This document shows, piece by piece, positions 1 through 10,073 of a DNA stretch of 38,378 bases (position 1 is its first letter; every line of letters starts with the position of its first letter). The position numbers and the translations under genes are program-made. The stretch lies in NCBI GenBank assembly GCA_014381465.1, contig JACNLP010000060.1:1-38378 (forward strand). The letters run 5' to 3'. Under the pieces are notes generated by a model. It was not told the DNA's origin, made no database searches, and saw only the letters and a program-made list of their open reading frames with translations. Source of the stretch: Flavobacteriales bacterium (GTDB lineage Bacteria; Bacteroidota; Bacteroidia; Flavobacteriales; BACL11).

Positions 1-171
1 GCAATTGTTGAAGAGTATCTGTATTCAGGTCAAGTTCCTGAAATGGACTATAAGGTTTCAGATGCCATTAATACTAAATTAATGCTTAAAGAGAAGATAA
101 TAACAAAGGACAGAGTAATAGATAGAATTATGGTTTTCGTAAACACCTTCTTTGAAGGATTGGCTGCCTAA
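1..171 (+). CDS. C-terminal fragment of an unrecognised protein
   Basis: Frame 1 is open from the first base of the window and stops with TAA at 169-171, giving 56 C-terminal residues; the start lies outside the window. The sequence is moderately charged, with a lysine-rich stretch (KLMLKEKIITKDR) and a hydrophobic end (MVFVNTFFEGLAA). I do not recognise a family. It overlaps by a few bases the stop of the convergent small gene at 168-416, a packing common in phage or mobile DNA. It could also be chance open frame. Confidence 0.4.
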   Translation, partial: AIVEEYLYSGQVPEMDYKVSDAINTKLMLKEKIITKDRVIDRIMVFVNTFFEGLAA

Positions 172-416
172 AAAAAACCTGCATCAAAAGGCTCATTATA
201 GGTGTGTCCGATTTTGTCCACTTTTGGTAGTATAAAGGGTAATATCTTAATCACTAACTCTAATCTTTCTTTAGGCTCTAAAGACTCCAATAACTCTTCA
301 ATCTTTTCTAATTCATTATATAGAACATCTTTTAAGATTGTCCTTAATTCTTTTGTTAATCTATTTGGTGTGCCTTTTTGTCTTCCACCATATTTCTTTC
401 CTGTTGTATTTGCCAT
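168..416 (-). CDS. Small basic protein, phage/mobile-element-like
   Basis: 82 residues, ATG start. The N-terminus carries a basic GGRQKGTPNRLTKELR stretch, followed by a predicted helical, charged segment (ELEKIEELLESLEPKERLEL) and a hydrophobic end. Small proteins beginning with a GGRQKGTPN-type motif are familiar from Bacteroidota accessory DNA and often lie near phage terminase genes; a DNA-binding or small-terminase-like role is an inference from that resemblance. It is convergent with, and slightly overlaps, the gene fragment at 1-171. I see no TAnnTTTG promoter just upstream. Function unknown. Confidence 0.6.
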   Translation of the reverse strand: MANTTGKKYGGRQKGTPNRLTKELRTILKDVLYNELEKIEELLESLEPKERLELVIKILPFILPKVDKIGHTYNEPFDAGFF

Positions 417-602
417 TCTATTTTAATCTATTATAGTTTAATTCCTTTACTGTAGTAATGTATTAGTCCGTTTATCTCTAAGAAAATGTGGGTTTATTGG
501 GTAATTACTTAATCCTTCTTGTGTAAGGGGTATTCTTAGGTCGTAGAGTAGAAGAAGGTCTTTATATAAAAGTTCAAGAACTGACTCGTCCTGTGTACAT
601 AG

Positions 603-643
603 CGGGAGGTTATCGAAAGATAGTCTCCCGTTTTTGTTTTTTT
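603..643 (+). terminator. Strong intrinsic terminator without an evident upstream gene
   Basis: A 12-bp stem (603-614 with 619-630, two G-U pairs) closes a GAAA tetraloop and is followed at once by a T-tract interrupted by one G (631-643). It acts in the plus direction, but the nearest upstream genes are a fragment ending at 171 and a minus-strand gene. It therefore appears to end a transcript whose gene has been lost or is non-coding. The stretch 417-602 shows no recognisable gene. One frame is open from 527 into the next gene, but it runs through this hairpin. Confidence 0.8.
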
Positions 644-644
644 A

Positions 645-652
645 TACCTTTG
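645..652 (+). promoter_or_regulatory. Bacteroidota -7 element (TACCTTTG) of the PHP gene
   Basis: The sequence matches the Bacteroidota sigma-ABfr -7 consensus TAnnTTTG exactly. It lies directly after the terminator T-tract and ends 9 bases before the ATG at 662, so the transcript would have a leader of only about 5 bases. I see no convincing -33 TTG at the right distance; that region is the terminator stem. Confidence 0.5.
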
Positions 653-661
653 CATTTCCTT

Positions 662-3025
662 ATGAAAAAAAATAATTTAATACTTTTTGTTTTTATTTTT
701 AGTGTTATTTCTGCTTTCTCACATGATAAAGAGCATCATGATAAAAAGAAAGATGACAAGCAAGTAAATAAACTCGGTTCTGAGATATTTGCGGATGCTC
801 CTTGGAGAATGAATAAGTTCGATATCAATGGAAATGTTAATTCGGTTCCTATTCATGTTTTTGCTCATGATGCTTCATCTTTTGGATACTCTATTGATTT
901 AGAGGCAATAAATATTCGGATTAAGAATGCATCAGATACAAGTTTTGGTAATATTTTTCTTTTTGACACCTTATTTAACAACAACTTTCAGCAACTTTTT
1001 GTAGATAAATCTATTTTTAATTCGGATTTAGATATTCAAGATTTTGATAGCTCATTAAGTAGTTCTTCATCTAATTATAGTATAGCATTTAATTCAGATA
1101 CTTGCAGTTGGTTCTCCTGTACTTATACGCATATTGATGCAGAATATTGGTATTTTACATTTATGATTCATCCAAACTATTTAATTGGATTTGATGATGT
1201 TATTGATATTGATATAGAGTTTATAATCAATGGAGGTATAGATAGATACACAAGACTGAGGGTGTTTAGAGATAGTGAAAATATACCTTCATTAATCAAT
1301 TGGTACAGAGGTGATGTGCATGTTCATTCTGTTTACACACAAAATTCAGCAGAAATTGGCTTGCCATTATCCATGACTAAAACAGCAGCAAAGAATATTG
1401 GACTTGATTGGATTACTACTACTGACCATACCTCAGATTTTGATAATTACGGAACATCAATAAATAATAATTGGAGTCAGCTAGAAACAGATGTTTTTTT
1501 GAGCAACTCTAGTGATTCTTCCTTTGTTTTTATTAAAGGGCAGGAAGTTGCAGTAAATAATAGTCAACAGCAATTAGTTCATATGCTTGCCTATCCTAGT
1601 CCTAATAATCCTGTAATTTTCCCCTTTTTAGGAGATGGTCATGGAGATTTGACACCTACAAATGTTAGTTTAGTTGATGTGCTAGATACGCTTTCAGATT
1701 TTGGTGGTTTTGCTTATGCAGCTCATCCTTTTGCTAATGGAGATAAGCTGCCAGATTTTCCTATTAATGGAGGTTTGTGGAATCTTTCTGACAGCAATTT
1801 TACAGCTAATGATTCCTCATATTCAAGTATAGGTTTGGTATCTTGTAATGACACAAATTTTCTTTCTGATGTGTTCTCAGCAAACTCAAATTATTTAATT
1901 CATGAATCCTTAAAGGGAGGGCAAATTTGGAATGTAAAACACAATTTGACAGCAACTGGAGATCAACAAAATCCATGGGATATTTTTCATACATCAGATA
2001 GCACTGCATTTGTTTTAGCCGATACAAATACAGAAAATTATTATCTGAATAGGTTTAGGCAAAGCATGGAAGTAGTGGATTTTATAAATCGAAAAGGGTT
2101 AATATTAAAAAATCAAAATACAAATCTGGAAAATTGGAAATTCTTTTATTCGGCAGGTAGTGATGCGCATGGCTCTTTTAATTATAGTAATACAGATGAT
2201 TTTATGCAGGTTGGAGAGATGCATAATAATGCATTAGGGAAATTAACTACTTTGGTTTACTCTGAGCAGGGAATGGGAAATCAAGGATCAGCTATACTTA
2301 AGCAGCTTAAAAATGGACATGCAATTATCTCAGACGGACCCTTAGTTGAAGCTTTTATTTCCCTTTCAGCTACTCAAAATAAGGATTTAATTATTGGAGA
2401 AGATTCTGTAATAAGTTGGGGTAATTATAAGAACTCTGAATTGATAATAAATGTAAACACAACATCATTTTATGGAAGTGTAGAGTATCTAAAAATGCAC
2501 TTGCAGACAGCTAATGAAAAATACAGCATAAGTTTAAATATTCAAAATGCAATTGGTTTAAATCAGTATGTTTTTGATTTATCCGATATAATTGATTCGT
2601 TAATGATTAATGAGATAGTAAGTGAACAATGGTTGCAATTTTCTTTTGAGCTTAAAACTAAGAAACAGTATCAAGGAGTGGAACATATACATAGACTTTC
2701 TCAGGAGAGTTTCTATTGTTTTACCAATCCTATTTGGATGAAGGTAAATAACCCACTAGTAGTTCAAGAATTTACGACTTTTAGTGCAAAACTGTATCCC
2801 AATCCAAGTAATGGAATCAGTTATTTGGAGTTAAATCTTAATAGGAAATCAGTTGTTACAATTCAAATATTTAATGAATTAGGCCAATTAATAGATGAAG
2901 AATATTTCAATAATTTAGCAGCAGGAAACCAATTATTATTTATTGATGTAGTTGAAAAAGGAATCTATTTTGTTCATCTTAAAATAAATGATGAGCAAAA
3001 GGTGTTAAAATTACTTAGATTTTAG
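662..3025 (+). CDS. Secreted PHP-type metallohydrolase with T9SS sorting domain
   Basis: 787 residues from the ATG at 662. An in-frame GTG at 593 would add 23 residues encoded by the terminator hairpin, so I reject it. The order is: signal peptide (1-20), His/Lys-rich linker (21-35), beta-rich N-terminal region, PHP-like metal site, and C-terminal type A sorting domain (about 700-787, starting near KLYPNPSNG). Metal-site candidates are H220-x-H222, D255-H256 in TTDH, E295 in GQE, H355 in AHPF and D501-x-H503 in SDAH. This pattern fits the PHP superfamily (CehA/McbA-like phosphoesterases). The likely role is an exported metal-dependent phosphoesterase, released or surface-attached through T9SS; the substrate is unknown. 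The last 280 bases of the locus are duplicated at 6380-6659. Confidence 0.85.
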   Translation: MKKNNLILFVFIFSVISAFSHDKEHHDKKKDDKQVNKLGSEIFADAPWRMNKFDINGNVNSVPIHVFAHDASSFGYSIDLEAINIRIKNASDTSFGNIFLFDTLFNNNFQQLFVDKSIFNSDLDIQDFDSSLSSSSSNYSIAFNSDTCSWFSCTYTHIDAEYWYFTFMIHPNYLIGFDDVIDIDIEFIINGGIDRYTRLRVFRDSENIPSLINWYRGDVHVHSVYTQNSAEIGLPLSMTKTAAKNIGLDWITTTDHTSDFDNYGTSINNNWSQLETDVFLSNSSDSSFVFIKGQEVAVNNSQQQLVHMLAYPSPNNPVIFPFLGDGHGDLTPTNVSLVDVLDTLSDFGGFAYAAHPFANGDKLPDFPINGGLWNLSDSNFTANDSSYSSIGLVSCNDTNFLSDVFSANSNYLIHESLKGGQIWNVKHNLTATGDQQNPWDIFHTSDSTAFVLADTNTENYYLNRFRQSMEVVDFINRKGLILKNQNTNLENWKFFYSAGSDAHGSFNYSNTDDFMQVGEMHNNALGKLTTLVYSEQGMGNQGSAILKQLKNGHAIISDGPLVEAFISLSATQNKDLIIGEDSVISWGNYKNSELIINVNTTSFYGSVEYLKMHLQTANEKYSISLNIQNAIGLNQYVFDLSDIIDSLMINEIVSEQWLQFSFELKTKKQYQGVEHIHRLSQESFYCFTNPIWMKVNNPLVVQEFTTFSAKLYPNPSNGISYLELNLNRKSVVTIQIFNELGQLIDEEYFNNLAAGNQLLFIDVVEKGIYFVHLKINDEQKVLKLLRF

Positions 3026-3036
3026 AAAGAATTCGC
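2757..3036 (+). repeat. 280-bp direct repeat, copy 1 (3' end of the PHP gene)
   Basis: This segment recurs at 6380-6659 with no indels and, by eye, two mismatches (2780 T versus 6403 G; 2791 A versus 6414 G). It covers the last 89 codons of the PHP gene, which encode the T9SS sorting domain, plus 11 bases after the stop. Identity breaks sharply at both ends. Confidence 0.95.
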
Positions 3037-3101
3037 AACCTAGCTTACACTTTATTTAGATTACGAACAAACTAGTAACCTTAAACATAGAGTATCTTAC
3101 T

Positions 3102-3129
3102 GTTAGTTAGTTAGTTAGTTAGTTAGTTA
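3102..3129 (+). repeat. Tetranucleotide microsatellite (GTTA)7
   Basis: Seven perfect GTTA copies lie in the 218-base gap between the PHP gene and the IPT/PKD-like gene. They directly abut a hairpin (3129-3148) and the predicted promoter of the downstream gene. Tracts of this kind can change length by slipped-strand mispairing. Confidence 0.95.
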
Positions 3130-3148
3130 CGATTTCTTGTGAAATCGT
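3129..3148 (+). terminator. Weak hairpin after the PHP gene
   Basis: A perfect 8-bp stem (ACGATTTC / GAAATCGT) with a TTGT loop. The following bases (AAGAAATTTT) form only a poor T-tract, so termination would be weak. The loop also supplies the TTG used as a possible -33 box of the next promoter. It may instead be an operator-like palindrome. Confidence 0.45.
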
Positions 3149-3169
3149 AAGAAATTTTACATATATTTG
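3137..3169 (+). promoter_or_regulatory. Predicted promoter of the IPT/PKD-like gene
   Basis: TTG at 3137-3139 and TATATTTG at 3162-3169 are separated by 22 bases, within the 17-23 range of the Flavobacterium consensus TTG-N17-23-TAnnTTTG. The leader to the ATG at 3244 would be about 70 bases. The (GTTA)7 tract ends 7 bases before the -33 box. Confidence 0.6.
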
Positions 3170-3243
3170 CAAAGAAATATTTTTCAAAGTGGCGATAAAG
3201 GGTTACTTGTCATTAAAATGAAAAAAATAAAAATCATTGTTTT

Positions 3244-4032
3244 ATGAAAAAATTGTTTACTTTATTATTTATTTGTGTTTTTGGAATTGCAAATGCACAA
3301 ACTGTTATTGTTAATTCTATTGTTCCAAATAGTGGAGAGAACTGTGAAACACTTTCTGTCACTATAAGTGGCTCCTATCTTGGCCAGTTTTCCGGAACTT
3401 CCTTTGTTCCAGATTTATCATTTACTCAGACAACTTCATCTACCACTTTTTATGGCGCTGTTACTTCCCATTCGTCTAATACTATCTTAGCTGATGTAAC
3501 TATACCAAGTAATGTACCGACAGGATTGTATGATGTAGTAGTACACAATTCAAATGTTATTTACCCACCATACAGCTCCACGGGTGTATTAAGTAATGGT
3601 TTTGAAGTAACCGCCCCTACTACTGCTGCCACTATGATTTTAGGAAATACACAACCAGCCCTTTCATCTATGGAAACATATTCTGTCTCTCAAGTTTTAG
3701 GGTCAACTTTTACCTGGTTCAATGCTGCAGGAGCAATAGTAAGTGGACAAGGAACAAACTCTATTGATATCCAATGGGGGAATACTGCTGGGGTATTTGA
3801 CGTATGTGTTGTAGAATTAGTTGGGTCGCAGTTATGTCCGTTAGACACACTATGTTTAAGTATTAATGTTGGATCTGGATCTAATATTGAAGATTATAAT
3901 TTAACTAATAAGAAGTTGGTTAAAATAATAGATGCTCTTGGCAGAAAAGTAAGTCTAACGTCAAACCGAAAAACTACTTTATTCTACATCTATGATGATG
4001 GAACGGTAAAGAAAAAACAGTTTATTGAATAA
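3244..4032 (+). CDS. Secreted IPT/TIG- and PKD-like protein with Bacteroidota C-terminal tail
   Basis: 262 residues, with a clear signal peptide (1-18, cleavage after ANA before Gln). Residues about 20-120 look like an IPT/TIG immunoglobulin-like fold (SIVPNSGENCETLSVTISG). Residues about 130-210 look like a PKD-type beta-sandwich (FTWFNAAGAIVSG...NTAGVFDVCV). The last 40 residues (KIIDALGRKV...LFYIYDDGTVKKKQFIE) resemble a short C-terminal segment that I recall on many exported Bacteroidota proteins; a sorting or anchoring role for it is inference. No catalytic motif is visible, so this is probably a structural or binding protein. It sits between the PHP gene and the ligase-like gene with its own promoter. 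Confidence 0.75.
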   Translation: MKKLFTLLFICVFGIANAQTVIVNSIVPNSGENCETLSVTISGSYLGQFSGTSFVPDLSFTQTTSSTTFYGAVTSHSSNTILADVTIPSNVPTGLYDVVVHNSNVIYPPYSSTGVLSNGFEVTAPTTAATMILGNTQPALSSMETYSVSQVLGSTFTWFNAAGAIVSGQGTNSIDIQWGNTAGVFDVCVVELVGSQLCPLDTLCLSINVGSGSNIEDYNLTNKKLVKIIDALGRKVSLTSNRKTTLFYIYDDGTVKKKQFIE

Positions 4033-4086
4033 GTCAAGTTTTTAGAATAATCGTATTTCTTTTGATTCAATTTTTATATTCTTAAT

Positions 4087-6189
4087 ATGAAAAGGATCTT
4101 ACAGGTATTTATAGTACTTATTCCATTATTAGTTTCATTCTCAACTACTGACCCAACTTTACATATAAGGTTCTTAGTGTTATCTATTTTTGTTGCACTT
4201 TCATTACTCCTGTTTTTAATTAACAACAAGAAGATTTGCAAGGCTGTTCTTTTTCATCCATTAGCAATTGCTTTTCTTATCCTTATTGTAGGATATCTTG
4301 TTTCTACTTTTTATCATGGTTTTGGTTCTGAATCTATTTATATTTTGTCAAAGATGTTGCTGCTTTATTTATTTATGATTATTTCGACACATCTAGTATT
4401 AGAATATGGCTTTAAGGAATTTATCAAATCGTTTGTATTATTTTCTTTCTTAGCATCATCAATCTACATCTTTCAATTTTTCTTATATTTTGAACGAATT
4501 AATTTAATAGAGAATCCATTGCAAAGAAATATTGCATTTGACAATATTTCAGGCACTATGGGACATAAGAATTTGCTATCATCTATACTTTTTTTAACCC
4601 TACCCTTTGTGATTTATTTAATAAGAGTTGGCAAGAAACTATGGAGGTTATTAAGCATTGTCTTACTTGCTTGTATGTTATTAATTATTTTGCAAACACA
4701 AACAAGAGCAGTATTTGTTGCTTTGGGTTTATTTGTAATCACTATCGCCATAGTATATAAATCACAAATAAAATTAAAACAGCTTTCTCTTTTATTGGGT
4801 TCAGTAATAGTTGGGCTCTCACTTTTTTTTACGATATTAAAATATACAGATCGGTATGATGCGCTTGTTCATGAGATGCACACAGCATTAGATTATAAAA
4901 ATAGTTTAAGATATAAACTTTATAAAAGCTCTTTTTATTTGATATCTAAGAATCCATTATTAGGTGTAGGCCCGGGTAATTGGCGATTGACAATTCCAAA
5001 GTATGGATTATATTTTGATTCATTTGGAACAAATTATGCTCAGCGACCTCACAATGATTTTTTGTGGGTATTTGCAGAAGGAGGTCTTATTCCAGGAATC
5101 TCATTCATTCTGATTTTCTTAATATTGTTAAGAGATTCATACTATTTGCATAAGAATAATAAAAAATCAAGTTTATTTTATTCTTTACTTTTCGCAACTT
5201 TCATTGGATTCTCTTTCATCAGCTTGGTGGATTTCCCACTGGAGAGATTCTCTCATAATATTATCTTTTTCTTTCTAGCAGCAATAATTATAGCAGGAAA
5301 ATTAAAACACACGGGATATAAAAAAGAACTTTTACCAAAGTGGTTAAATTTTTCTTTCTTAGGGGTTGTATTTTTTGTGATTTATGTAGCTGTTGTTAGA
5401 TACCAAGGAGAAGTGTATGCTACTAATGCAATTAATTTTCAAGCTAAACAAGATTGGAGTAGCGTAGTAGGAAATATCGACAAAGCATATAATAAAACAT
5501 ATTATGAGTTAGAGAACACATCAACTCCATTATTATGGTATAGGGGTGTTGCCTATTTTAATCAACAAAGATCTAATCTAGCTTTGAAGGATTTTAAAGA
5601 AGCATATAAGGTTCATCCATATCATGAACATGTCCTCAATAATTTAGCAAGTTCTTATGAAATGACAGGAAATCATCTTAAAGCAAAACAGTTTTATTTA
5701 GAGGCTCTTAGAGTAAATCCAACATTTAAAGAAGTACGAATTAACTTAGCAGCAATATTATATAATGAAAAGAATTATATCCAAGCATTGGATATTATTT
5801 TAAACAGTCTAGTTCTTCCTTTTCAAAAAAGAAAGGAGACTAATGATAATTATGATTTATACTTAAAAACAATTTTTAAAGGATGGGCAAATAGTGTTTC
5901 TGACTTATCAAGTGAAAAACAAAAGATGATTTTAAACGATATGCTTAATCGATTTGAGGAAAATCCTCAACAAGCAGAGAAAATTATGCGAAAAGCAATA
6001 CAGAGACGTACAACTTTTAATCTAGATTATTTATCTATCTTAGAGAATATGTTCTCAAAAATAAACTTACAAATAGATAAGATAAAAAATAATAAGGATT
6101 GGTATCATGATATAAAGATAAAGTCATTAAAAAATAATATTTCAATTGAAGATCAATTGTTTGAAGACGCATTATTTCTCTGGCACTAA
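4087..6189 (+). CDS. O-antigen ligase/Wzy-like membrane protein with C-terminal TPRs
   Basis: 700 residues. About a dozen hydrophobic segments fill residues 5-440. The Wzy_C-type signature lies between the late segments: GVGPGNW (293-299) and RPHNDFLW (320-327) followed by EGGLIPG. GHKN at 159-162 is also typical of this family. Residues about 480-580 contain two to three TPR-like repeats (LLWYRGVAYF..., VLNNLASSYEMTG..., VRINLAAILYN...), and a charged helical tail follows. The family joins or polymerises polysaccharide chains at the periplasmic face of the inner membrane, and TPR fusions are common in Bacteroidota. No other polysaccharide genes are nearby. The stop lies just before an IS256 remnant, so a shortened C-terminus cannot be excluded. 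Confidence 0.8.
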   Translation: MKRILQVFIVLIPLLVSFSTTDPTLHIRFLVLSIFVALSLLLFLINNKKICKAVLFHPLAIAFLILIVGYLVSTFYHGFGSESIYILSKMLLLYLFMIISTHLVLEYGFKEFIKSFVLFSFLASSIYIFQFFLYFERINLIENPLQRNIAFDNISGTMGHKNLLSSILFLTLPFVIYLIRVGKKLWRLLSIVLLACMLLIILQTQTRAVFVALGLFVITIAIVYKSQIKLKQLSLLLGSVIVGLSLFFTILKYTDRYDALVHEMHTALDYKNSLRYKLYKSSFYLISKNPLLGVGPGNWRLTIPKYGLYFDSFGTNYAQRPHNDFLWVFAEGGLIPGISFILIFLILLRDSYYLHKNNKKSSLFYSLLFATFIGFSFISLVDFPLERFSHNIIFFFLAAIIIAGKLKHTGYKKELLPKWLNFSFLGVVFFVIYVAVVRYQGEVYATNAINFQAKQDWSSVVGNIDKAYNKTYYELENTSTPLLWYRGVAYFNQQRSNLALKDFKEAYKVHPYHEHVLNNLASSYEMTGNHLKAKQFYLEALRVNPTFKEVRINLAAILYNEKNYIQALDIILNSLVLPFQKRKETNDNYDLYLKTIFKGWANSVSDLSSEKQKMILNDMLNRFEENPQQAEKIMRKAIQRRTTFNLDYLSILENMFSKINLQIDKIKNNKDWYHDIKIKSLKNNISIEDQLFEDALFLWH

Positions 6190-6379
6190 CCCATAAAGTG
6201 TGTAAGTTTAAAAAATAAACTAATTTTATAATTTTAAATTTACCACTATGAACAAAGATGACTTATTAAATGGGGATTTCCTCAAACAATTTAAAACAAG
6301 AGATGAATTAACCTCCTTTATGGAACATTTACATTCAAGAGGTATTGAACAATTACTAGAAGGAGAATTAGATGCTCAT
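6190..6379 (+). mobile_element. Left-end remnant of an IS256-family insertion sequence
   Basis: An ATG at 6248 opens 44 codons (to 6379) reading MNKDDLLNGDFLKQFKTRDE, continuing to LLEGELDAH. This is the typical start of IS256/Mutator-family transposases, in which GEL-AHLGY follows. The frame is cut at codon 44 by the duplicated segment; a TAG made at 6380-6382 ends it. The catalytic DDE region and the right end are missing. The 58 bases before the ATG include AAAGTGTGTAAGTTTA, plausible for an inverted-repeat end. The exact left edge, and any target duplication, cannot be fixed. Confidence 0.8.
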
Positions 6380-6382
6380 TAG
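6248..6382 (+). pseudogene. Truncated IS256-family transposase (44 codons)
   Basis: Only the N-terminal helical segment remains, ending in LLEGELDAH, after which intact family members continue with LGY and the catalytic domain. The stop codon TAG is created by the first bases of the fused 280-bp repeat. No activity is possible. Family assignment rests on my recognition of the N-terminal pattern. Confidence 0.78.
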
Positions 6383-6659
6383 TAGTTCAAGAATTTACGA
6401 CTGTTAGTGCAAAGCTGTATCCCAATCCAAGTAATGGAATCAGTTATTTGGAGTTAAATCTTAATAGGAAATCAGTTGTTACAATTCAAATATTTAATGA
6501 ATTAGGCCAATTAATAGATGAAGAATATTTCAATAATTTAGCAGCAGGAAACCAATTATTATTTATTGATGTAGTTGAAAAAGGAATCTATTTTGTTCAT
6601 CTTAAAATAAATGATGAGCAAAAGGTGTTAAAATTACTTAGATTTTAGAAAGAATTCGC
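6380..6659 (+). repeat. 280-bp direct repeat, copy 2 (orphan T9SS sorting domain)
   Basis: Near-identical copy of 2757-3036. It still encodes the sorting domain in an open frame (to the TAG at 6646-6648) but has no signal peptide, no credible start and no cargo domain, so it is a gene fragment. Its left edge falls exactly inside the IS256 transposase frame. Its right edge ends 34 bases before the korB stop, which is on the other strand. Confidence 0.95.
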
Positions 6660-6693
6660 TCAGTTGCTCCTAAAACAAAGGCAAAAACTATTT

Positions 6694-7716
6694 TTAATTC
6701 ACCACCCAAGTATCTCCACTATTGAATAAATCATCAGAAGTTTTGAACTTAGTATTTTTAATATTTTCTTCAAGTTGACTCGCCATTCCATCATCATATG
6801 TTAATTGTTCTACCGCTCTAATCACCCCCATTGCAACAGGAAATTCGGGAGCACTCATAGTAGCTAACATCATGTGTAAAGTAATGTCATTTTCTTTTTC
6901 ATCATGCACTAAAATGTCTTCTTCAGTAATTCCATTTTCACCAATAGTTACTACTTCTAACTTTAATCCGTTAAGAATAATTCCTTTATTCATTTCAGAG
7001 CCAAAAATCATTGGTTTTCCATCCTCAAGCCAAAGTTGCATGTCTTTTTTTACATCTTTCCCAGTAACTGCACCATGTATTTTGTCATTAAAAATAACAC
7101 AGTTTTGTAGGATTTCTACCAAAGAAGTTCCTCTATGATTTTCAGCAGCTAAAAATACAGCTTGCATTGCTTTTGGGTTAGTATCAGGAACTCTAGAAAT
7201 AAAAGTACTTCCACACCCTAAAGCTAATTTTACAGGGATAAAAGGATTATCTGTTGTTCCGTGAGGATTAGATTTTGTTTTAATTCCTTTTTGTGAGGTG
7301 GGTGAAAACTGACCTTTTGTAAGCCCATAAATCTCATTGTTAAATAAGATAATATTGATGTCAATATTTCTTCTAATAGCATGTATAAAATGATTTCCTC
7401 CAATTGCTAAAGCATCACCATCACCGGTAATTTGCCATACTTTTAATTTAGGATTTGCTAATTTTACTCCTGTTGCAATTGCTGGAGCTCTACCATGTAT
7501 CGTATGAAATCCGTAAGTATTCATATAATAAGGAAAACGAGATGAACAGCCAATTCCTGCAATAAACACATAATCCTCTTTATTTGTTTCTAGTTGAGGC
7601 AATGCTTTTTGCATTGATCTTAAAATTGCATAATCCCCACAACCAGGACACCACTTTACTTCTTGGTCGGATGTGAAATCTTTATTTGTTAATGTTTTAA
7701 CTTCTAATTCTGACAT
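6694..7716 (-). CDS. korB: 2-oxoglutarate:ferredoxin oxidoreductase, beta subunit
   Basis: 340 residues. It carries the thiamine-diphosphate half of the enzyme that converts 2-oxoglutarate, CoA and oxidised ferredoxin to succinyl-CoA, CO2 and reduced ferredoxin in the cytoplasm. C23-x-x-C26 in the CPGCGDYAIL motif, together with a later Cys (GIGCSSR), fits the cluster-ligand pattern of this subunit family. GDGDALAIGGNH followed by NNEIYGLTKGQ is the TPP/Mg binding motif. The HGRAPAIATG segment is typical of KorB/PorB. It starts 2 bases after the korA stop, so the two are co-transcribed. Confidence 0.93.
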   Translation of the reverse strand: MSELEVKTLTNKDFTSDQEVKWCPGCGDYAILRSMQKALPQLETNKEDYVFIAGIGCSSRFPYYMNTYGFHTIHGRAPAIATGVKLANPKLKVWQITGDGDALAIGGNHFIHAIRRNIDINIILFNNEIYGLTKGQFSPTSQKGIKTKSNPHGTTDNPFIPVKLALGCGSTFISRVPDTNPKAMQAVFLAAENHRGTSLVEILQNCVIFNDKIHGAVTGKDVKKDMQLWLEDGKPMIFGSEMNKGIILNGLKLEVVTIGENGITEEDILVHDEKENDITLHMMLATMSAPEFPVAMGVIRAVEQLTYDDGMASQLEENIKNTKFKTSDDLFNSGDTWVVN

Positions 7717-7718
7717 AA

Positions 7719-9557
7719 TTATGATAATAAAGTGTTAAAGTGTTCTTTTAATTCTGTTGTTTTAAATGGTAAACCTTGTATATGATTGAATTGTTCATAT
7801 TTAAATTCAGGGTGTTTCATTCTTAAAAGACTTACAAACTGCCCTTTATTTATTTCACAGACTACAATAGTTTTATAGTTTGAAAAAATCTCTGCTGTAT
7901 TTTTTGGAAGAGGGTTGATGTAGTTAAAGTGTGCAAGAGAAACATCTTTTCCTTCTTCTCTTAATTCTTTTACTGCTGTGTAGAGGGAGCCGTAAGTTCC
8001 TCCCCACCCAACAACTAATACATCTCCTTTCTCATCCCCAAAAATTTCCTGATTAGGAATAAAATTAGTAACTCTTTCTACTTTTTCTGCTCTAAGGCTA
8101 CACATTACTTCATGATTGTCTGGGTCGTAAGAGACATTTCCTGTAAGCTCATCTTTTTCTAAACCACCTAATCTGTGTTCTAGTCCTTTCGTTCCTGGAA
8201 TTGCGTGTTTTCTTGCAAGTTTTTCTACATCTCTTGCGTAGGGTTGCCAATCTTCTCCTTGAGTTGCTACTAATGGATTGATGTTTGGCATATCCTTTAC
8301 AGAACGAATTTTCCAAGGACCAGCTCCGTTTCCTAGATACCCATCAGTTAATAAAACTACTGGGGTATTGTGCTCTAATGCTAATCTGGAAGCTTCAAAA
8401 GCCCAATCAAAACAATTTGACGGAGTGCTTGCTGCTACTACTACTACAGGACTTTCTCCATTTCTTCCATAAAGCGCTTGTAATAAATCAGATTGCTCGG
8501 TTTTTGTCGGCAATCCTGTTGAAGGACCTCCTCTTTGAACATTTACAACAACAAGTGGTAATTCTGCAATCATTGCTAGTCCTAAAGCCTCACCTTTCAG
8601 GGCTAAACCAGGGCCAGAAGTTGTAGTAATTGCTAAATCTCCAGCAAAACTAGCTCCAATTGCAGAGCAAATTCCAGCAATTTCATCTTCTGCTTGAAAA
8701 GTTTTAACCCCCAAGTTTTTATGTTTTGCTAATTCATGTAAAATATCAGTTGCAGGAGTAATAGGGTAAGATCCTAAAAATAATTCTTTGCCCGATTTTT
8801 CAGCAGCTGCAATAAATCCCCAAGCAGTTGCTTGGTTCCCCATTATATTTCTATAAGTTCCTTTATCAATATCTGCTTTTGCAACAGTATATGATGAAGG
8901 TAAAGCCTCAATTGTGTCAGCAAAATTATAACCAGCATGTAAAACTTTAATGTTGGATTCAACAATTAAAGGTTTTTTTGCAAATTTTGCATTTAAGAAA
9001 TTTTCTGTTTGCTCCATTGGTCTGTTAAACATCCAGTAAACCATTCCTAAGGCAAACATATTTTTACTTCTTCCAATGCTTTTCCCATCTAAGCCAGAAT
9101 CTTTTAGCGTTTCTCTGGTTAAAGATGTAATTGGAGCTTGCACAAGATTATAGGCATCAAAAGTTTCATCTTCTAAAGGGTTGGTTTGATAGCCTGCTTT
9201 TTCTAAATCTTTTTTAGTAAAAGAATCAGAATTTACAATTATAGTTCCGCCATCTTTAATCCAAACTCTATTTGCTTTAAGTGCAGCAGGGTTCATTGCA
9301 ACTAATACATCAGCAATGTCTCCTGGCGTATTAATTTCAACATTTCCAATATGAACTTGAAACCCAGAAACCCCTGCTACTGTCCCTATAGGGGCTCTAA
9401 TTTCTGCTGGATAATCTGGGAAAGTTGCTAAATCATTCCCTAAAAGTGCGGATGTGTCGGTAAATTGTGTTCCTGTTAATTGCATTCCGTCTCCGGAATC
9501 TCCTGCAAACTTGATTACTACTTTCTCAAGATCTACAGCATTATTTTTTGTACTCAT
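7719..9557 (-). CDS. korA: 2-oxoglutarate:ferredoxin oxidoreductase, alpha (gamma-alpha fused) subunit
   Basis: 612 residues, the length usual for the fused form. The gamma-type domain is N-terminal (FAGDSGDGMQLTG, about residues 12-190). The pyrimidine-binding and transketolase-like domains follow, with GSYPITPATDILHEL, EDEIAGICSAIGASFAG and TTTSGPGLALKGEALGLA. The C-terminal domain contains VVGWGGTYGSL. Together with KorB it forms the oxygen-sensitive route through the TCA cycle that many Bacteroidota use instead of, or beside, the 2-oxoglutarate dehydrogenase complex. The ferredoxin gene is divergent, 198 bases away. Confidence 0.93.
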   Translation of the reverse strand: MSTKNNAVDLEKVVIKFAGDSGDGMQLTGTQFTDTSALLGNDLATFPDYPAEIRAPIGTVAGVSGFQVHIGNVEINTPGDIADVLVAMNPAALKANRVWIKDGGTIIVNSDSFTKKDLEKAGYQTNPLEDETFDAYNLVQAPITSLTRETLKDSGLDGKSIGRSKNMFALGMVYWMFNRPMEQTENFLNAKFAKKPLIVESNIKVLHAGYNFADTIEALPSSYTVAKADIDKGTYRNIMGNQATAWGFIAAAEKSGKELFLGSYPITPATDILHELAKHKNLGVKTFQAEDEIAGICSAIGASFAGDLAITTTSGPGLALKGEALGLAMIAELPLVVVNVQRGGPSTGLPTKTEQSDLLQALYGRNGESPVVVVAASTPSNCFDWAFEASRLALEHNTPVVLLTDGYLGNGAGPWKIRSVKDMPNINPLVATQGEDWQPYARDVEKLARKHAIPGTKGLEHRLGGLEKDELTGNVSYDPDNHEVMCSLRAEKVERVTNFIPNQEIFGDEKGDVLVVGWGGTYGSLYTAVKELREEGKDVSLAHFNYINPLPKNTAEIFSNYKTIVVCEINKGQFVSLLRMKHPEFKYEQFNHIQGLPFKTTELKEHFNTLLS

Positions 9558-9587
9558 TTGTATTTAAGTTGAGTTATAAATTGCAGG

Positions 9588-9595
9588 CAAAAATA
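9588..9595 (-). promoter_or_regulatory. -7 element (TATTTTTG) of korAB
   Basis: Exact TAnnTTTG match on the minus strand, ending 30 bases before the korA ATG and implying a leader of about 26 bases. No -33 TTG is visible at the usual distance in this A/T-rich gap. Confidence 0.5.
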
Positions 9596-9699
9596 CATAG
9601 CTTCAACTATTTAATCCCTTTTTTTTAAACTTTTTTTAAGGTTTTTTAACAAGAATGAAATTAGACTATTTAGAATGGAAAAAAATTCTAATTGTATGC

Positions 9700-9727
9700 T
9701 TTGTCATTGAAAAATTCTATACTTTTG
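9700..9727 (+). promoter_or_regulatory. Promoter of the ferredoxin gene
   Basis: TTTG at 9700-9703 and TACTTTTG at 9720-9727, 16 bases apart (one below the usual 17-23). The ATG is at 9756, giving a leader of about 24 bases. Confidence 0.55.
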
Positions 9728-9755
9728 CAAGTATAATTTAACCAATAAAATAAAA

Positions 9756-10073
9756 ATGGCAATTAAAATTACTGATGACTGTATCAATTGTGAAGCATGC
9801 GAACCCGAATGTCCTAACAATGCAATTTACGCTCCAGAAGAAGCTTGGAAGTTTTCAGACGGAACAACTATGGAAGATGATCAAGAACATGAGGATGGAG
9901 GTTTTTCTGATGAGTTCTTTTATATAGCGACTGATAAATGTACAGAGTGTAAAGGATTTAATGATGAGCCAGCTTGTGAGGCGGTTTGTCCTGTTGATTG
10001 TTGTGTTCCTGATGAAGATAATGAAGAAACAGAAGATGAATTGTTAGCAAAAAAAGATAAGCTGCACGCTTAA
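9756..10073 (+). CDS. 2[4Fe-4S] ferredoxin
   Basis: 105 residues, ATG start. The first cluster motif is C9-x2-C12-x2-C15-x3-C19-P. The second is C62-x2-C65-x8-C74-x3-C78-P, the elongated form seen in YfhL/Fdx-type bacterial ferredoxins. A long acidic insert (about 38-54) and an acidic tail (DEDNEETEDE) follow the general acidity of ferredoxins. Its place next to, and divergent from, korAB suggests it is the electron acceptor of that enzyme; this is inference from context. Confidence 0.92.
   Translation: MAIKITDDCINCEACEPECPNNAIYAPEEAWKFSDGTTMEDDQEHEDGGFSDEFFYIATDKCTECKGFNDEPACEAVCPVDCCVPDEDNEETEDELLAKKDKLHA

What the first reader, a model, noticed from the sequence alone, without database searches (positions are those of the whole stretch)
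6190..6659. IS256 transposase remnant fused to a duplicated T9SS sorting domain
The first 44 codons of an IS256-family transposase end exactly where a 280-bp copy of the 3' end of the PHP gene (2757-3036) begins. The copies are 3623 bases apart, have no indels and differ at two positions, so the event is recent. The copy keeps a complete sorting-domain frame without a start. This looks like IS-associated capture or shuffling of a secretion tag, a possible way for T9SS tags to spread to new cargo genes. Microhomology TAGTAG is at the left junction, and a sequence like the reverse of the IS end (CTTACACTTTAT) follows copy 1 at 3042-3053. An assembly chimera is the main alternative.
Basis: partly seen in the sequence, partly recalled or inferred. 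Interest (0 to 1): 0.65.

Follow-up and report, generated by a model that had tools for sequence, protein, structure and literature searches.

The report
Broken IS256 patched with duplicated gene end
A dead fragment of a jumping gene sits directly against a fresh 280-base copy of the tail end of a nearby secreted-protein gene; it is most likely a DNA-rearrangement scar with no working product, although neighbouring genes elsewhere in this genome also appear to share copies of their secretion tags.

Summary
The repeat is real in the assembly. 2757-3036 and 6380-6659 match over 280 bp with two differences and no indels, and there are no other copies in the 1.98-Mb genome. The left partner is a true IS256-family left end, starting at 6182 rather than 6190, with 44 transposase codons.

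Three details fail. The 'IS-end' at 3042-3053 is at chance level. TAGTAG is part of the copied unit, not demonstrable microhomology. There is no fusion gene: the transposase frame stops at the junction, and the sorting-domain frame is in another phase with no signal peptide or good start.

Homologues show that the sorting domain is native to the PHP gene, so copy 1 is the source. The best reading is an IS-associated deletion scar that acquired a copy of a nearby 3' end. A k=55 short-read assembly cannot exclude misresolution.

A related genome (G012) has an IS256 remnant abutting an unrelated sorting domain, best explained by deletion in place. In this genome, neighbouring cargo genes with unrelated bodies share 91-96% identical tag DNA (p about 1e-5 against distant pairs), suggesting local tag copying without any IS. 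Tag capture by the IS is not supported.

The parts
662..3025 (+). PHP / CehA-McbA-type metallohydrolase gene with its native T9SS type A sorting domain; source of the copy
   Evidence: NCBIfam NF038032 residues 236-716 (2e-15), TIGR04183 residues 734-807; of 26 homologues found, those whose C-terminus lies in the record end in TNPIW(+) followed by a C-terminal domain, except the two Acidobacteria homologues, which stop right after TNPIW
2757..3036 (+). Copy 1 of the 280-bp unit: linker + sorting domain + stop + 11 bp
3244..4032 (+). Putative secreted protein (PKD-like domain) ending in a short conserved tail ...LFYIYDDGTVKKKQFIE
   Evidence: Pfam PKD_6; tail shared with 20+ proteins of the genome
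4087..6189 (+). O-antigen ligase/TPR (Wzy_C) gene; its stop codon lies in the IS terminal repeat, so the IS sits at or in its 3' end
   Evidence: Pfam Wzy_C 6e-20; homologues align only to about residue 652-656
6182..6379 (+). Left end of an IS256-family element (terminal repeat GGCACTAACCCATAAAGTGTGTAAGTT, leader, 44 transposase codons); about 198 of about 1297 bp kept, right end absent
   Evidence: 77% nt identity to the intact element G058:C152 (L019 548-1844)
6248..6379 (+). First 44 codons of the IS256 transposase; frame closes at TAG 6380-6382 created by the junction
   Evidence: 75% aa identity to the G058 transposase
6380..6659 (+). Copy 2 of the unit: orphan sorting-domain sequence, out of phase with the transposase, no signal peptide; only a TTG (6448) inside the domain could start it
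6694..7716 (-). korB-like 2-oxoacid oxidoreductase gene, convergent right-hand neighbour; marks the right limit of the scar
   Evidence: 71-85% identity to korB-like genes of relatives; nothing downstream of korB conserved

Best explanation
A non-functional rearrangement scar. An IS256-family element inserted at the 3' end of the O-antigen-ligase gene (shown: its left repeat starts at 6182 and supplies the stop codon). A later break inside or next to the element removed its remaining ~1.1 kb and right end (shown: absent). The gap was closed with a 280-bp copy of the 3' end of the PHP gene 3.6 kb upstream in the same orientation, most simply by repair synthesis with template switching (inferred). 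The copy is a gene tail with stop codons at its left edge, no start and no signal peptide, so it makes no secreted product and cannot move by itself.
For: IS256 left end and its truncation. No other IS256 transposase in the genome, so no helper element is present in the assembly. Exact direct repeat with only two copies genome-wide. The copied domain is native to the PHP family, so the direction is copy 1 to copy 2. The junction closes the transposase frame and the domain is in another phase. Other IS256 remnants in the order are also truncated and decayed without any tag, so broken IS256 copies are ordinary. Both differences lie 23 and 34 bp from the left junction and none in the next 245 bp, as error-prone repair near a switch point could give (inference; assembly collapse could do the same).
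Against: No intact ancestral locus is available, because the PHP gene was not found in the 39 relatives searched (they match only its sorting domain). Deletion plus templated insertion therefore cannot be told from duplication followed by deletion. The left edge of the copy falls at the boundary between the enzyme and its tag, which a random template switch would hit only by chance. Reads across the junctions were not available.
Confidence: 0.5

Rival explanations
1. Duplication first: the PHP gene, or its 3' part, had already been duplicated to a place between the ligase gene and korB. The IS inserted in front of it, and an IS-adjacent deletion ran from transposase codon 44 into the start of the duplicated sorting domain.
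For: G012 has this outcome at another locus: IS256 codons 13-149/150 joined within 12 bp to an unrelated sorting domain present once in that genome. Sister genome G058 has an intact IS256 at the same locus, without an obvious target duplication, running straight into a long repeat-protein ORF in the same direction. This reading explains why the left breakpoint sits at the tag boundary in both cases.
Against: Needs more steps (duplication, trimming on the right, IS insertion, deletion). No trace of any other part of a second PHP gene is in the genome.
Confidence: 0.22
2. Assembly or strain-mixture artefact: the repeat, or the order through it, was misresolved in a short-read graph.
For: Of eight exact matches between sampled contig ends, six are 55 bp (others 56 and 45; a masked contig left out), as in a k=55 de Bruijn assembly. 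The perfect part of the repeat (2792-3036, 245 bp) is longer than that, so it was passed only with read pairs, and real differences inside it could have been collapsed.
Against: Four distinct flank-to-repeat junctions exist, and the two left ones carry different bases at 2780 and 2791, so each needs its own reads. The only other pairing gives PHP-copy-korB plus a closed 3.6-kb circle. No inverted chimeras were seen in about 890 kb sampled.
Confidence: 0.2
3. The copy is a recent member of a general process in this genome: tag-bearing gene 3' ends are copied or converted between nearby genes, and this one landed beside an IS remnant instead of a cargo gene. (This can be true together with the best explanation.)
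For: Neighbouring cargo genes with unrelated bodies share tag DNA: L160 15353-15460/17089-17196 96%; L161 13269-13386/14867-14984 95%; L163 2203-2345/3437-3580 91%. Same-codon use in these tags is 0.86-0.91 against about 0.5 expected. Same-strand pairs within 5 kb average 0.79 identity against 0.64 for all others, Mann-Whitney p = 1.1e-5 (pairs not fully independent).
Against: Those pairs belong to a different, shorter tag family, are older (91-96%), and lie in intact genes. Conversion between existing tags is a different event from a new copy beside an IS.
Confidence: 0.25
4. IS256-mediated capture of a secretion tag as a route for tags to reach new cargo genes.
For: Physical adjacency; both truncated IS256 remnants found in the family lie against a sorting domain, against none of about 45 IS256 loci elsewhere in the order.
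Against: No right IS end, no transposition unit, no in-frame product, no signal peptide; only two cases, one of them explained by deletion. G012's domain has a frameshift near its end.
Confidence: 0.04

Closest known systems
IS256-family insertion sequence (Mutator-like p-MULT 1, PMC3942029)
   Same: Terminal repeat GGCACT..CCCATAAAGTGTGTAAGT, leader and N-terminal transposase residues match an intact element of a same-family genome
   Different: Only about 15% of the element remains; catalytic domain and right end are gone, so it cannot transpose
T9SS type A C-terminal sorting domain (TIGR04183 / PF18962)
   Same: Copy 2 keeps the whole domain to its stop codon
   Different: No signal peptide, start or cargo; T9SS cargo needs an N-terminal Sec signal peptide as well (PMC10202324)
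IS-adjacent deletion scars (from general knowledge)
   Same: IS left end kept, right part lost, abrupt join to other DNA; G012 shows the same outcome with another sorting domain
   Different: Here the joined DNA is a duplicated, not an in-place, gene end
Templated insertions at break-repair junctions (template switching; from general knowledge)
   Same: Direct copy of DNA a few kb away, differences clustered near one junction
   Different: 280 bp is longer than typical filler DNA; the mechanism is inferred only

Membership tests
IS256-family insertion sequence | IS256 transposase (Mutator-like DDE) | tested here: inconclusive
   Only 44 N-terminal codons remain; they match the intact G058 transposase at 75%, which passes NF033543. 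The catalytic part is absent, and the NF033543 match in the G058 protein begins only at residue 41, so the fragment itself cannot be expected to hit it
IS256-family insertion sequence | Terminal inverted repeats at both ends | tested here: not met
   Left repeat present at 6182; no right repeat at 3026-3100 or 6650-6720 above chance. The feature is therefore filed as a remnant, not as an element
IS256-family insertion sequence | Short target-site duplication | not testable with these tools
   The right junction of the element is lost
T9SS type A sorting domain | Match to TIGR04183 over the domain, ending at the stop codon | tested here: met
   Copy 1 1.6e-10, copy 2 (from TTG 6448) 4e-8
Functional T9SS cargo (copy 2) | N-terminal Sec signal peptide and cargo in frame with the domain | tested here: not met
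   Stops TAGTAG in the transposase frame; domain frame open only from about 6349, beginning inside IS sequence; only TTG 6448 within the domain
Mobile tag cassette carried by IS256 | Tag between two intact IS ends, or repeated in several places | tested here: not met
   One IS end; two copies of the tag in the whole genome; no IS256 transposase elsewhere in it

The most novel reading that the evidence does not exclude
In this flavobacterial lineage, the 3' ends of genes that carry T9SS-type tags are copied or converted locally between neighbouring, otherwise unrelated genes. The window catches a fresh copy that landed on a broken IS instead of a gene, so tag spread would be an ongoing process driven by repair near break-prone sites such as IS remnants.
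Probability: 0.22. Interest if true: 0.6.

Novelty: new member of a known kind. Interest (0 to 1): 0.28.

Why it matters
As a single locus it is a genome scar with no product. It matters slightly more because it led to two comparisons. IS256 remnants in this family twice end exactly at a sorting domain. And cargo genes next to each other share secretion-tag DNA although their bodies are unrelated. The second bears on an open question, how so many unrelated proteins in Bacteroidota came to carry nearly the same T9SS tag, and it can be tested with strain collections.

Tried and rejected
- Right IS end at 3042-3053: rejected by shuffles and window tiles.
- In-frame fusion of transposase and tag: rejected by reading frames.
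- Other copies of the unit or other IS256 elements in the genome: none.
- PHP homologues in plasmids or viral contigs: none. IS-copy segment in phage records: none.
- Ancestral arrangement from korB or ligase neighbours in relatives: neighbours not conserved.
- MDA chimera: an apparent palindromic contig (L211) proved to be a masked run of N, so it was discarded.
- Rfam: no RNA family in 1-9800.
- Literature on tag shuffling, gene conversion or IS-linked duplication of T9SS tags: nothing direct found.

Full report
WHAT IS THERE. The window is a whole contig (C4, 38,378 bp) of an 85-contig, 1.98-Mb genome that is 97% complete. Bases 2754-3036 and 6377-6659 form a direct repeat, spacing 3623, without gaps. 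They differ at 2756/6379 (C/T), 2780/6403 (T/G) and 2791/6414 (A/G). Nothing else in the genome matches the unit at DNA level.

THE LEFT PARTNER. 6248-6379 encodes MNKDDLLNGDFLKQFKTRDELTSFMEHLHSRGIEQLLEGELDAH. A genome of the same family (G058) holds a 398-aa transposase that is 75% identical over all 44 residues and matches NCBIfam IS256 at 2e-122. Its element runs from L019:548 to 1844, with ends GGCACTGTCCC(G/A)(A/T)AAAGTGTGTAAGT. The window matches it from 6182 on (77% over 196 bp). The element therefore starts at 6182 and about 198 of about 1297 bp remain. The upstream O-antigen-ligase-like ORF (4087-6189) ends on a TAA inside the IS repeat. Its homologues align only to about residue 652-656 of 700, so the IS sits at or just inside the 3' end of that gene.

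WHAT IS NOT THERE. The right IS end is missing. The microhomology TAGTAG belongs to the copied unit in both places, and the related intact IS has CTGGGG at that point, so it cannot be called microhomology. The transposase frame closes at TAG 6380-6382. The sorting-domain frame is another phase and has no start except TTG 6448 within the domain, so there is no fusion protein. T9SS cargo needs a Sec signal peptide as well as the C-terminal domain (PMC10202324), which copy 2 lacks.

DIRECTION OF COPYING. The PHP gene is a CehA/McbA-like metallohydrolase with a type A sorting domain. A scan of 84,980 species found 26 homologues. Those whose C-terminus lies within the record end in the same TNPIW motif followed by a C-terminal domain, except the two Acidobacteria homologues, which stop directly after TNPIW. 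The domain is thus native to the PHP gene and copy 1 is the source. The left edge of the unit lies within a few codons of that boundary. Among 39 relatives only the sorting domain found clear matches, so there is no close ancestral locus to compare.

IS IT ASSEMBLY? Of eight exact matches between sampled contig ends, six are 55 bp, as in a k=55 short-read graph (one masked contig discounted). A perfect 245-bp repeat cannot be passed by k-mers alone, and differences inside it may have been merged. Each flank-to-repeat junction still needs reads of its own, and the only alternative pairing gives PHP-unit-korB plus a 3.6-kb circle. I keep about one chance in five for an artefact or strain mixture.

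COMPARISON ACROSS RELATIVES. In 52 genomes of the family only three IS256 loci of this kind were found: G058 intact, the window remnant, and G012. In G012, codons 13-149/150 are joined within 12 bp to an unrelated sorting domain that has a frameshift near its end. That domain occurs once in G012. G012 and G058 share the left-hand neighbours, and in G058 the intact IS runs straight into a long repeat-protein ORF with no obvious target duplication. An in-place deletion explains G012, although G058's contig ends before the far end of that ORF, so its own sorting domain is presumed, not seen. Among about 45 IS256 loci elsewhere in the order, none is joined to a sorting domain; one has an ordinary gene end about 140 bp from the element. 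Type A-like domains make up 0.77% of the sampled 887 kb, so two joins out of two remnants is striking, but the sample is far too small to claim a mechanism.

A WIDER PATTERN SEEN ON THE WAY. The gene at 3244-4032 ends in a short tail, LFYIYDDGTVKKKQFIE, found on more than 20 proteins of this genome (26 in the 887-kb sample) with mostly unrelated bodies. No Pfam or NCBIfam family reaches its cut-off for it. It resembles the D-E motifs of a type A domain (my reading); for HBP35 those last 22 residues are reported to be sufficient for secretion (PMC10202324). Neighbouring genes share this tag DNA at 91-96% over 108-144 bp (L160, L161, L163), while their bodies show no homology by BLASTP beyond signal peptides. 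Same-codon use is 0.86-0.91 against about 0.5 expected. Same-strand pairs within 5 kb are more alike than other pairs (0.79 against 0.64, p = 1.1e-5; pairs not independent). It is a different tag family, so linking it to the window event is inference.

VERDICT. The most likely origin is a one-step or two-step rearrangement at a broken IS256, which picked up a copy of a nearby gene end and left a dead scar. IS-driven capture of a secretion tag is not supported.

Noticed in passing
window 3244-4032; L160 13024-17203, L161 13269-14984, L163 2203-3580, L170 1198-4316: A short C-terminal tail family (..LLKIVDVLGRET.PTKNTPLFYIYDDGTVEKRIVIE) on at least 26 proteins in about 45% of the genome, unnamed by Pfam/NCBIfam; neighbouring genes with unrelated bodies share near-identical tail DNA, sometimes with up to 160 bp of 3' flank.
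   Followed up: partly
L018 1500-2174 (G012:C2:490881-491555): Independent IS256 remnant joined within 12 bp to an unrelated T9SS sorting domain with a frameshift near its end; sister genome G058 has the intact IS at the same locus.
   Followed up: yes
window 587-645; L026 7622-7680; L027 5132-5185: A 55-59 bp stretch with a GC hairpin just upstream of the PHP gene is 92% conserved in two other genera at other loci; no Rfam match.
   Followed up: no
window 6694-9557: korAB-like genes are 84-85% identical (KorB) to those of other genera (G023, G009) but only 71-75% to same-genus genomes G001 and G002 and not found in G003; patchy distribution, possible horizontal transfer.
   Followed up: no
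window 3105-3128: Short tandem run of TTAG units between the PHP gene and the next gene; possible slippage site.
   Followed up: no
window 593-3025: The PHP/CehA-like gene with sorting domain was not found in 39 relatives, although homologues occur across Flavobacteriales and Bacteroidales MAGs (51-66% identity in the catalytic part): an accessory gene in this family.
   Followed up: partly
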